Assembly (NCBI RefSeq): GCF_023507705.1
Contig: NZ_JALBGD010000006.1
Coordinates: 62,001-126,000 of the forward strand
Length of the DNA: 64,000 bases
Source of the DNA: Stappia sp. WLB 29
GTDB lineage: Bacteria > Pseudomonadota > Alphaproteobacteria > Rhizobiales > Stappiaceae
Direction: 5' to 3'
Shown here: one piece after another, positions 58,160 through 61,963 of the stretch
How the letters are laid out: each line of letters opens with the position of its first letter
Position numbering within the stretch: position 1 is the first letter of the stretch
Translations under genes and position numbers: made by a program
Notes under the pieces: generated by a model
Database searches by the model: none
The model's input: only the letters and a program-made list of their open reading frames with translations
Told to the model about the DNA's origin: nothing

Positions 58160-61100
58160 ATGCTGCTGAAGGACCTCACCGGCGAACAGGTGCTCGCCGC
58201 GCCCGAGTTCGAAACCGAAATCGCCGGATTGTCCGCAGACAGCCGAACGGTTTCCAGGGGATTTGTGTTCGCCGCGCTGAAAGGCGCGAAGGCGGACGGC
58301 ACCCGTTTCATCGCGGCCGCACGCGACGCCGGCGCCGGCGCCCTGCTGGTGGGCAGCGACACGCCGCTTGCGGCGCTCGGCCCCGATGAGGGCGGCTGCC
58401 CCGTCATCGTCAGCGACGATCCGCGCCGCACGCTGGCGCTGATGGCCGCCCGCTTCTACGAGCGCCAGCCCGAGACGCTGGTGGCGGTGACCGGCACCAG
58501 CGGCAAGACCTCCGTCGCCGTCTTCACCCGCCAGATCTTCGCCCATGCCGGGTTCGAGGCGGCGAGCCTCGGCACCATCGGCACGGTGACCAGCCGCGGC
58601 GCCCAGTACGGCAGCCTGACGACGCCGGACCCGGTCTCCCTGCACCAGACGCTGGCGCGGCTCGCCGACGACGGCATCACCCATGCCGCGCTCGAGGCCT
58701 CCAGCCATGGGCTCGACCAGCGCCGGCTCGACGGGCTGCGCCTTGCGGCCGCTGCCTTCACCAATCTGGGGCGCGATCACCTCGACTACCATGCCGATGT
58801 CGAGGACTATCTCGCGGCCAAGATGCGGCTGTTCGATACGTTGCTGGAGGGCGACCGGCCGGTGGTGCTGGAGCCGTCGGCGCCCTATGCCGAACGCGTC
58901 CTGGCACTGGCGCAGGAACTCGGCCGCAGCGTCTTCACCGTCGGCGAGGGCGGCGACGACCTGAAGCTTCTCGACATCCGCCACGACGGGTTCGCGCAGA
59001 TCCTGTCGATCGAGACGATCGAAGGCTTCTTCGAGGTGCGCCTGCCGCTGGCCGGGCGCTTTCAGGTGTCGAACGCGCTGGTTGCGGCGGGCCTTGCGAT
59101 CTGCTGCGGCGTGCCGACCGGCGTGGCGCTGTCGGCGCTGGAGGATCTGCAGGGTGCGCCGGGGCGGCTGGAACTGGTCGGCGAGACCGACGACGGGGCG
59201 CTGGTCTTCGTCGACTACGCCCACAAGCCCGACGCGCTGGACACGGCGCTGGCGGCACTGCGCCCCTTCACCAAGGGGCGGCTGATCGTGGTGTTCGGCG
59301 CGGGCGGCGACCGGGATCCGGGCAAGCGCCCCTTGATGGGGCAGGCCGCCGCCCGGCAGGCCGACATCGTCATCGTCACGGACGACAATCCGCGCAGCGA
59401 GGACCCGGCCGCGATCCGCGCCGAGGTGATGGACGGGGCGCCGGAGGCGCTGGAGATCGGCGACCGGCGCGACGCCATCGAGGCGGCCATCGGCATGCTG
59501 CAGCCGGGCGACGTGCTGTGCATCGCCGGCAAGGGGCACGAGCCGGGGCAGATCGTCGGCGACGAGGTTCTGCCTTTCTCCGACCACGAGGTCGCCCGCG
59601 AGGCGATTGCGGCGCTGGCCGAAAGCGCCCTGTTCGACGCGGCCGAGGACGGCGGCATCAACCTCGGTCTCGACGGCGCGCGCGATCTCGACGATGCACT
59701 GGAGCAGGCCCTCGCCGAGAGCTTCGATCTGAGCGAGGAGATCGCCGGAGAGACAGCTGAGGAGACGCCCGAACAGGTGTCTGAGGAGGCGGGCGAGGAG
59801 GACGGGCTCCACCTGGAACTGTCCGAGGACGACCTGCTGGACGAGCTGTTCGAGGAAGAGGACGACCGGGACGCCGACGAGGCGCGGGACTTCGAGCCTT
59901 CCGAGGAGGCTGCGGAAGACGAGCTGCTGGCCGAAGAGCTCGCCGAAGACGATCTGGTCGACGAGGACGAGTTGCTCGAAGAGGGGGCGAGCGAAGAGGA
60001 GACCGCCGAAGACGAGCTTATGGCCGAGAGGCCGCAGGCCGAAGATGCGTCTGAGGACGAGGACGATCTGTTGGCCGATGACGGGTCGGAGAGCAGGCGC
60101 TTTCCGGAAATCCGGCTGACCGAGGAAGATCTTCTGGCGGACGAGCTCTTGCCGGCCGATGCGGAAGAGGGCGAGGCCGAGCAGGACACCGGCGCGGAGC
60201 CCTTCGAAGCGGAGAGCGAGGCCGATGAGCCGGGTCCCGAGGCGGCCGACGAGGCCGAGGAGGATCTTCCGGCGGACGAGCCGGACGCCGAAGCGATGGA
60301 CGAGCCTGAGGACGAGATCTTCGCTGCCGGGGACGAGCACGAGCACGAGCTTGAGGCGAGCGAGGCGCATGCGGAGCCCGAAACGGATCTCGCGCGGGAG
60401 CCCGAAGTCGCGTCCAGACCTGCTGCCGCCAGCGTTCATCCGGCCTTCGTCGCGCCGGCGGTGCCGTCGTTCACGGCACCCGCTGCCCAGATCGTGAAGC
60501 CGGCGCCGGTCGCCGGCGAGCCGATCGCGGCCGAACCCGACCGGCCGCTGTGGTATCTGGACGAGATGGTCGAGGCCACCGGCGGCGAGTTGCGCGGTGC
60601 CGACATCCCCCATGTCACCGGCGTTTCCATCGACAGCCGCAGCATTGCCGCCGGAGAGGTCTTCGTTGCCATCGCCGGAGAGCGGTTCGACGGGCACGAC
60701 TTCGCGGCCAAGGCCTGCGAGGCCGGGGCCGCGCTTGCCATCGTCGCGCGCGAGCGGGTCGGCGAGCTGCCGCCGCAGGGGCGCTACCTGGTGGTCGAGG
60801 ACCCGTTGGAGGCGCTGCGCGATCTCGGACGGGCCTCGCGCGCCCGCAGCCGGGCCCGCATCGTGGCGGTGACCGGCTCGGTCGGCAAGACCAGCACCAA
60901 GGACATGCTGAAGCTGGCGCTGTCGCCGTCCGGGCGCACCCATGCGCCGGTCGCCTCCTTCAACAACCACTGGGGCGTGCCGCTGACCCTGGCGCGCATG
61001 CCGGCGGACACCGAATTCGGCGTCTTCGAGATCGGCATGAACCATCCGGGCGAGATCACGCCGCTGGTGCAGATGGTCCGCCCGCATGTGGCGGCGATCA

Positions 61101-61963
61101 CCACGGTGGAGGCGGTGCATCTGGAGTTCTTCGGTTCGGTCGAGCGTATCGCCCAAGCCAAGGGCGAGATCTTCCTCGGGCTGGAGCCGGGTGGACTGGC
61201 GCTGCTCAACCGCGACAACAACCAGTTCGACCTTTTGACCTATCTGGCAAAGGCTGCCGGCGTGCGCCGCATCGCCACGTTCGGGCGGCAGGGGCCGGCG
61301 GACGTGCAGGCCGAGCGCGTGTCGCTGCAGACGGGCTGCAGCTCGATCTCGGGCCACGTCTTCGAGCAGCAGATCACCTACAAGGTCGGCGCGCCGGGCG
61401 TGCACCTTGTCACCAACAGTCTTGCCGTCTTGGGGGCGGTGGCGGAACTGGGCGGCGATCTCGCCCGGGCGGGCATGGCGCTGGCCGCCTTCCGCGCGCC
61501 GAAGGGGCGCGGCGAGCAGGCGGTGCTGAAGCTGCCGAACGGCCGCGCGACGCTGATCGACGAGAGCTACAACGCCAATCCCGCCTCGATGCGCGCGGCG
61601 CTGAATCTCCTGAAGGAAACTCCGATCGAGCGGAACGGCCGCCGCATCGCGGTGATCGGCGACATGCTGGAGCTGGGCGAGGCCGAGTTGCAGCTGCATG
61701 AAGCGCTCAACCGGCCTGTTGCCGAATCCGGTGCGGATCTCGTCTACTGCGTGGGTCCGCGCATGCATGCACTCTGGGAGCTGCTGCCGAAGCACCAGCG
61801 CGGCGCCTATTCCGAAGAGGCGGCGGGCCTGAAGCCGCTGCTCGTCGAGGATATCCGCCCGGGCGACGTCATCATGATCAAGGGCTCGCTCGGCACCCGC
61901 ATGGGGCCGCTGGTCGAGGCCCTCAAACGCGATTTCCCCGTCGACGACGACGGGGCCGAATAG
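58160..61963 (+). CDS. murE-murF: Fused MurE-MurF ligase with a long acidic linker
   Basis: 1267 residues in one uninterrupted frame. MurE is about 1-490: P-loop TGTSGKTS at 111-118, and DNPRSEDP from 409, the DNPR motif of enzymes adding meso-diaminopimelate. Residues about 494-740 are mostly Glu/Asp with repeated EDELL-like pieces, then about 50 Ala/Pro/Val residues. MurF is about 793-1267: P-loop TGSVGKTS at 905-912, [14 protein letters not shown] [11 protein letters not shown], and [15 protein letters not shown]. One protein would perform both consecutive cytoplasmic steps, from UDP-MurNAc-dipeptide to the pentapeptide. ATG 58160 is chosen because [10 protein letters not shown] starts where MurE normally does; the ribosome site is weak, and an upstream start would lie within the ftsI gene. 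Confidence 0.93.

What the first reader, a model, noticed from the sequence alone, without database searches (positions are those of the whole stretch)
58160..61963. MurE and MurF fused through a ~300-residue acidic, repetitive linker
The frame is open from MurE to MurF with all catalytic motifs intact in both halves. The join is not a short hinge: residues about 494-740 are dominated by Glu and Asp with at least six variants of an EDELL/EDDLL motif, followed by an Ala/Pro-rich stretch. MurE-MurF fusions have been reported in other bacteria (Bordetella), but a long acidic disordered segment inside the pentapeptide pathway is unusual. It could keep the two ligases on a flexible tether, act as an electrostatic docking site for MraY/MurG or basic divisome parts, or form condensates near the septum.
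Basis: partly seen in the sequence, partly recalled or inferred. Interest (0 to 1): 0.82.

Follow-up and report, generated by a model that had tools for sequence, protein, structure and literature searches.

The report
MurE–MurF fusion with acidic disordered spacer

Summary
One 1,267-aa frame (58160-61963, +) encodes MurE (1-485), a 311-aa spacer (486-796; 38% Asp+Glu, net -107) and MurF (797-1267). Each half is the genome's only copy. The genus is Stappia.

In 87 genomes of the family, 13 of 14 Stappia, 15 of 16 Pseudovibrio and 3 of 3 of an unnamed genus show one long frame (the two exceptions lie at contig ends); 54 of 54 genomes of four other genera keep separate genes.

In 29 spacers read, length runs from 22 to 699 aa and sequence hardly aligns between genera, yet all are acidic, base-poor and predicted disordered. 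Near pairs show dN/dS 0.14-0.46 and keep charge more often than mutation predicts. Acid-flanked Leu/Phe motifs are enriched but missing from 9 of 29. Several spacers carry pure hexanucleotide repeats, up to (GAAGCC)x93, read in acidic frames.

Best reading: a swollen polyanionic tether selected for composition, not sequence. Docking is possible; homotypic condensates and electrostatic channelling are disfavoured. One Pseudovibrio manages with 22 residues. MurE-MurF fusions are known; this spacer was not found described in the searches made. New variant of a known kind.

The parts
58160..59614 (+). MurE half (residues 1-485), DAP-type UDP-MurNAc-tripeptide ligase
   Evidence: NCBIfam NF001124 743 bits (cut-off 476), TIGR01085 515 bits; Pfam Mur_ligase domains; G112, G115-T117, K221 and D408-R412 invariant in 21 fused relatives; solved homologues 8f5d, 1e8c
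59615..60547 (+). acidic disordered spacer (residues 486-796, 311 aa, net -107, pI 4.05)
   Evidence: composition; charge-hydropathy; AlphaFold pLDDT mostly below 50; dN/dS; composition kept against neutral decay
59669..59746 (+). residues 504-529, weakly predicted acidic helix just after MurE
   Evidence: DSSP helix 34-59 of the fragment model, block pLDDT 47-69; low confidence
59816..60265 (+). most acidic 150 residues (553-702) with six [DE][DE]x[LIMF][LIMF]x[DE] motifs at 556, 586, 602, 617, 634, 655
   Evidence: motif class enriched over within-spacer shuffles, 34 observed against 3.7 +/- 1.9 in the first 21 spacers
60398..60547 (+). Ala/Pro-rich end of the spacer (residues 747-796), alike only among the nearest Stappia
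   Evidence: alignment A1
60548..61963 (+). MurF half (residues 797-1267) and stop
   Evidence: NCBIfam NF010693 734 bits (cut-off 544), TIGR01143 500 bits; solved homologue 1gg4; pLDDT near or above 90 in most of the domain

Best explanation
A bifunctional MurE-MurF ligase of the Stappia/Pseudovibrio lineages. Shown from sequence: both ligases look intact, are sole copies here, and share one reading frame with a region between them that shows purifying selection on charge, is predicted disordered, and changes length in part by hexanucleotide steps. Inferred: the spacer works as a swollen, non-sticky polyanionic tether. It holds the consecutive enzymes together at 1:1 and lets each three-domain ligase open and close freely. 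Selection acts on acidity, solubility and disorder, while sequence and length drift within wide limits. Recurrent acid-flanked Leu/Phe motifs may add weak docking. The tether is not an electrostatic channel, because the UDP-MurNAc-tripeptide it would carry is itself an anion.
For: No internal stop in 29 genomes read. dN/dS in the spacer 0.14-0.46 against 0.02-0.11 in the two domains, 10 pairs. In six close pairs spacer substitutions keep charge class at 0.61-0.78 against 0.52-0.58 expected, and acid/non-acid switches are rarer than expected in 6 of 6. Under neutral simulation from the window's spacer D+E falls to 0.25, 0.18 and 0.10 when 40, 60 and 80% of residues have changed, but 0.28-0.40 is seen in the first 21 spacers, also at about 53% GC in Pseudovibrio. 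Disorder: 29 of 29 on the disordered side of the charge-hydropathy line; pLDDT below 50 over 494-646 of the P. exalbescens fusion, pTM 0.50, with 740 of 1,118 residues at 90 or more. Length 22-699 aa. Pure hexamer repeats of at least 4 units in 7 of the first 21 spacers, all in EA, EP or AD frames, and in G418, but none in 484 kb of the own genome or in a 400-kb sample of G418.
Against: Pseudovibrio G420 has only 22 residues between the domains, about as few as Bordetella, and sits next to a 170-aa spacer in the tree, so a long tether is not needed for the fused enzyme to exist. G426 is less acidic (D+E 0.23). In the two Pseudovibrio pairs the charge-keeping excess is small (0.61 against 0.57, 0.65 against 0.57) and changes involving Lys/Arg are not rare (0.26, 0.15); the MurE control also keeps charge above expectation in 4 of 6 pairs, on few substitutions. 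Relaxed, charge-biased evolution plus slippage could be mostly tolerated filler. No biochemistry, expression or localisation data are available here.
Confidence: 0.6

Rival explanations
1. Mostly tolerated filler: once the genes fused, hexanucleotide slippage keeps lengthening and shortening the join. Selection only removes stops, hydrophobic and basic runs; the spacer has no positive role.
For: Length 22-699 aa, changing between sister species; near-relatives differ in copy number (x8 against x21 in G009/G013, x10 against x4 in G018/G023); dN/dS clearly above that of the domains.
Against: Acid-flanked hydrophobic motifs are enriched about 9-fold over shuffles, and none of 500 shuffles reached the count in a reduced set of 12. 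Acid/non-acid switches are rarer than expected in 6 of 6 pairs. Spacers of 124 aa or more persist in 28 of 29 genomes read.
Confidence: 0.3
2. Docking scaffold: the repeated acid-flanked Leu/Phe motifs bind a basic or hydrophobic partner (a divisome or polar-growth protein, or a face of MurE/MurF itself) and recruit the enzyme.
For: Motif enrichment. The 22-aa spacer of G420 still holds an acid-flanked Leu-Phe, EDLFDD, though it misses the strict pattern. A weak helix is predicted at 504-529. In the own genome the two best MreB-model matches are DnaK and FtsA, so a Mur scaffold other than MreB is conceivable.
Against: The strict pattern is missing from 9 of 29 spacers: 3 of 3 of genus g7 and 6 of 13 Pseudovibrio (for this reason I lowered this rival from 0.25 to 0.2). 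No dcw protein gains a basic extension with the fusion, by eye. The spacer has no confident structure in either model; contacts were not computed. MreB loss is recalled to be general in the order, including unfused families.
Confidence: 0.2
3. Condensate-forming segment that concentrates the enzyme near the septum or pole.
For: Low complexity and repeated hydrophobic stickers. PopZ of alphaproteobacteria carries a shorter acidic spacer of similar charge inside a condensate protein (passages of PMC9512792).
Against: Net charge -0.19 to -0.39 per residue with few basic residues opposes homotypic condensation. In PopZ a longer acidic spacer raised the saturation concentration and lowered partitioning. 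No folded oligomerisation segment is predicted in the spacer.
Confidence: 0.05
4. Two proteins in vivo: the spacer is cut, or MurF is started internally.
For: Long exposed chains are protease sensitive in general (recalled). An in-frame ATG lies at residue 803, near the natural start of MurF.
Against: No convincing ribosome-binding site stands before the four internal starts listed, by eye on the 20 bases shown. The frame is kept without stops in 29 of 29 genomes read, which internal initiation would not require.
Confidence: 0.1

Closest known systems
Bordetella pertussis MurE-MurF (PMC6420597; section 7 and passages read)
   Same: One polypeptide with MurE then MurF; catalytically active and flexible by that paper; the paper also lists Pseudovibrio spp. 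as fused
   Different: 945 residues with a linker of about 20; no long acidic spacer mentioned in the parts read
PDB 8f5d 'Multifunctional fusion protein' (found by sequence)
   Same: MurE followed by MurF in one chain
   Different: MurE match ends at 503 and MurF match starts at 505: practically no spacer
Compact fusions in other families of the order (G046, G053, G116, G129, G211)
   Same: In-frame MurE-MurF
   Different: Joins of 7-24 residues with one or two acidic residues each
PopZ acidic spacer of Caulobacter (passages of PMC9512792)
   Same: Disordered, net -0.28 per residue, acidic fraction 0.29, little sequence conservation with conserved composition, self-repelling and expanded beyond the denatured limit
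   Different: 78 aa, proline-rich, narrow length range within Caulobacterales; sits between a short helix-bearing N-terminus and an oligomerisation domain; no enzymes; homology not tested
NCBIfam NF008896, bifunctional MurE/MurF equivalog
   Same: Same order of domains; best-scoring NCBIfam model
   Different: 856 bits against a cut-off of 1023; model length 965 leaves no room for the spacer

Membership tests
MurE (DAP-adding UDP-MurNAc-tripeptide ligase) | Nearly full-length match above curated cut-off; P-loop, DNPR motif and active-site lysine | tested here: met
   NF001124 743 bits against 476; K116, T117, K221, D409-R412 invariant in 21 fused relatives; the roles of DNPR and the lysine are recalled
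MurF (D-Ala-D-Ala-adding ligase) | Nearly full-length match above curated cut-off; P-loop and active-site lysine | tested here: met
   NF010693 734 bits against 544; K910, T911, K1001 invariant; roles recalled
MurE/MurF bifunctional equivalog NF008896 | Whole-protein score over 1023 bits | tested here: not met
   856.4 bits; in 397 genomes of the phylum only 1 has a match over that cut-off
Compact (Bordetella-type) MurE-MurF fusion | Short linker, about 20 residues | tested here: not met
   311 residues here; 124-699 in 28 of 29 spacers read, 22 in one
MurE-MurF fusion in general | Both ligases in one reading frame, no separate copies | tested here: met
Intrinsically disordered acidic linker | High net charge, low hydropathy, low predicted order | tested here: met
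   29 of 29 on the disordered side; pLDDT mostly below 50 in the two modelled
Condensate scaffold (PopZ-like) | Phase separation in cells or in vitro | not testable with these tools
   no experiment possible; composition argues against homotypic condensation
Bifunctional enzyme active in both steps | Both ligase activities in the purified chain | not testable with these tools
   only sequence integrity was checked

The most novel reading that the evidence does not exclude
The spacer is a length-adjusting device: a hexanucleotide-microsatellite hotspot inside an essential cell-wall gene. It alters tether length in two-residue steps that cannot break the frame, while acid-flanked Leu/Phe motifs recruit the enzyme to sites of wall growth in bacteria that lack MreB. 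It may have arisen twice, in Pseudovibrio and in Stappia plus its sister genus.
Probability: 0.12. Interest if true: 0.78.

Novelty: new variant of a known kind. Interest (0 to 1): 0.47.

Why it matters
Mur ligases are essential and usually thought of as compact enzymes. Here an enzyme pair tolerates, or uses, a spacer that ranges from 22 to 699 residues among relatives while keeping its charge. That is a natural length series for asking whether tethering of consecutive Mur ligases matters, how selection acts on disordered linkers in bacteria, and whether microsatellites can adjust an essential enzyme without frameshift.

Tried and rejected
Paralogues of the spacer in the own genome: none (besides itself one chance hit at E 1.9). 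Basic partner in the dcw cluster: none seen in 12 flanking proteins of 20 genomes (10 fused, 8 unfused of the family, 2 of other families), lengths and net charges compared by eye. Some orthologue ends in that table are cut or mis-extended, e.g. several FtsZ, the G022 proteins, and MurG of G017, G027 and G031, which run over a stop. Single origin of the fusion: undecided. Monophyly of the fused genera is allowed by nine other dcw genes (AU p 0.44) and by all data (0.19), and rejected by the AU test on MurE+MurF alone (0.017), though not by the KH or SH tests printed with it (0.067, 0.11). The MurE/MurF tree joins the unfused Roseibium group with Stappia plus g7, support 85. Long-spacer fusions outside the family: none confirmed. 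The order, class and phylum surveys (397, 289 and 397 genomes) print only the best part of their rows, so absence is not proven. Of 12 loci from other families read, picked for long open frames, 9 hold murE and murF in different frames and 3 are compact fusions; of 5 read, G046 and G053 are compact fusions and G041, G044 and G055 are not single frames. The printed open-frame length is therefore no proof of fusion; values near 1,750-2,100 were not followed. MreB: the two best matches are DnaK and FtsA; a third, weaker match was not read. Helix spacing patterns: the strict one is not enriched (3 against 4.1), a looser one modestly (44 against 31.0 +/- 5.0). Motif counts against shuffles used the first 21 of 29 spacers, the reduced set 12 of those; DNA-level repeat counts also used those 21, plus G418. 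Spacer ends in the last eight genomes are set by BLAST ends, so their lengths may be off by some residues.

Full report
1. The observation. Frame 58160-61963 (+) is open for 1,267 residues. Residues 1-485 are MurE and 797-1267 are MurF by NCBIfam models well above cut-off and by Pfam. The spacer, 486-796, has 76 Glu, 42 Asp, 56 Ala, 31 Leu, 23 Pro, 10 Arg and 1 Lys, pI 4.05; the whole chain is 134 kDa, pI 4.3. The own genome has five Mur-ligase middle-domain matches: the two halves of this protein, two further along the same cluster (murD and murC by position), and one on another contig, not identified. So murE and murF have no second copy. The cluster is otherwise ordinary: mraZ, rsmH, ftsL, ftsI, murEF, mraY, murD, ftsW, murG, murC, murB, ddl, ftsQ, ftsA, ftsZ (these names are mine, from order and sequence; family models were run only on murE-murF).

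2. Where it occurs. A named scan with the fused relatives returned Stappia stellulata, several Pseudovibrio, Roseibium/Labrenzia and Breoghania among its loci. The spacer of G011 equals that of S. stellulata letter for letter, and that of G421 equals P. flavus. In the 87 genomes of the family the MurF match lies in a long frame in 13 of 14 Stappia (g1, 1160-1403 aa), 15 of 16 Pseudovibrio (g6, 982-1660 aa) and 3 of 3 of an unnamed genus (g7, 1176-1247 aa). G001 has its two halves at the ends of two contigs; in G419 the match starts 430 bases from a contig end and its other half was not looked for. In the other 54 genomes (45 g2, 1 g3, 5 g4, 3 g5) the frame is 348-637 aa, that is, separate. I read 29 of the fused spacers base by base (13 Stappia, 3 g7, 13 Pseudovibrio); G416 and G424 were not read.

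3. What is conserved. Lengths are 22, 124, 140, twenty-five between 170 and 385, and 699 aa; D+E is 0.23-0.40, K+R 0.00-0.06, and no spacer has a Cys. Net charge per residue is -0.19 to -0.39, and 29 of 29 are on the disordered side of the charge-hydropathy line, the two enzyme halves of the window not. Between genera the spacers hardly align. Near pairs give dN/dS 0.14-0.46 in the spacer against 0.02-0.11 in the domains, 10 pairs; gapped alignment of spacers may inflate the spacer values. Charge-keeping substitutions exceed mutational expectation in 6 of 6 pairs, only slightly in the two Pseudovibrio pairs, and acid/non-acid switches fall below it in 6 of 6. The MurE control keeps charge above expectation in 4 of 6, on 9-42 substitutions a pair. 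A neutral simulation loses acidity quickly. So the region is translated and its chemistry appears to be maintained by selection.

4. Motifs. [DE][DE]x[LIMF][LIMF]x[DE] occurs 34 times in the first 21 spacers against 3.7 +/- 1.9 after shuffling each spacer, and in 16 of 21. In a reduced set of 12 it is 17 against 1.7, with none of 500 shuffles as high. Over the 29 it is present in 20: 13 of 13 Stappia, 7 of 13 Pseudovibrio, 0 of 3 g7. The patterns were chosen after looking at the sequences, so the significance is inflated. The 22-residue spacer of G420 still holds EDLFDD.

5. Repeats. Pure hexanucleotide repeats of at least four units are present in 7 of the first 21 spacers, all read as EA, EP or AD, and in G418, where (GAAGCC)x93 encodes (EA)93 and a second array of 14 units encodes EP. 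G417 has (EA)12 at the protein level. None occurs in 484 kb of the own genome or in a 400-kb sample of G418. Near pairs differ in copy number (x8/x21, x10/x4). The window's own spacer has no pure hexamer array, only weak imperfect repeats. Assembly error in the 93-unit array cannot be excluded.

6. Structure. AlphaFold of P. exalbescens MurE-MurF (28 sequences) gives two confident enzymes and a spacer (494-646) below pLDDT 50, with pTM 0.50, so the relative placement is undefined. The window's spacer plus MurF gives the same picture, with one weak helix at 504-529. The best solved sequence match to the MurE half is 8f5d, itself a MurE-MurF chain with no room for a spacer.

7. Origin. A tree of nine other dcw genes leaves Pseudovibrio unresolved (support 44). 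The AU test on MurE+MurF rejects a single fused clade (p 0.017); nine other genes (0.44) and all data together (0.19) do not. In the MurE/MurF tree the unfused Roseibium group joins Stappia plus g7 with support 85. Two gains, or one gain and one split, remain open, as does a single gain. G420 (22 aa) is sister to P. exalbescens (170 aa) with support 100, so length changes fast.

8. Function. Tethering of two consecutive enzymes follows from the fusion itself. In Bordetella the single chain was active, with active sites about 35 A apart in the fitted model and a flexible shape (passages and section 7 of PMC6420597). A 300-residue polyanion is expected to be far more extended: the acidic PopZ spacer of similar charge density behaves as a self-repulsing polyelectrolyte, expanded beyond the denatured limit, and lengthening it weakened condensation (passages of PMC9512792). 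Electrostatic channelling is unlikely because the intermediate is an anion (general chemistry, recalled). Homotypic condensation is unlikely for the same electrostatic reason. Docking is possible but no partner is seen in the cluster. G420 shows that length is not essential in every species.

9. Literature. MurE-MurF fusions were sought. Of what was listed, I opened only PMC6420597, which treats the fusion directly and names Pseudovibrio. Neither its parts that I read nor the titles and abstract openings listed mention a long acidic spacer. Subscription journals are largely not held, so absence from print is not proven.

10. Verdict. Real, conserved in three genera, rapidly evolving, and a new variant of a known kind. 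Interest moderate: the spacer's behaviour is surprising, but its function is untested and at least one species nearly does without it.

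Noticed in passing
L181 (Pseudovibrio G418), 2639 onward: A pure (GAAGCC)x93 array, 558 bp, inside murE-murF, plus a second hexamer array of 14 units at 2429; no other pure hexamer array of 4 or more units in a 400-kb sample of that genome.
   Followed up: partly
L178 (Pseudovibrio G420): Spacer of only 22 residues, nested in a genus with mostly long spacers.
   Followed up: partly
L165:7740-8918 (-), own genome: 392-aa predicted protein with the second most acidic 150-aa stretch in the sample and a SADEIDAIFAS motif; not identified.
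   Followed up: no
L172:14682-16574 (-), own genome: 630-aa predicted protein with an acidic run, perhaps CobT (recalled, not tested); third most acidic.
   Followed up: no
L075:10025-12850: Compact MurE-MurF fusion (18-nt gap) in an uncultured Rhizobiaceae-group genome.
   Followed up: no
window 57998-62014 (-): A 1,338-aa antisense open frame opposite murE-murF; I take it for a by-product of high GC and biased codons, not tested.
   Followed up: no
own genome G000: No MreB seen: the two best PF06723 matches are DnaK and FtsA; a third weak match was not read.
   Followed up: partly
L043, L045, L048, L049, L183, L196, L197 (Pseudovibrio), just before MurF: A roughly 40-residue block ending in EYE(R/Q)QMIELP... 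is alike in these seven Pseudovibrio although the rest of the spacer varies.
   Followed up: no
L144, L147 (Pseudovibrio G018, G028): MurD of both is markedly more acidic (net -30, -32) than in the other family members compared (-5 to -18).
   Followed up: no
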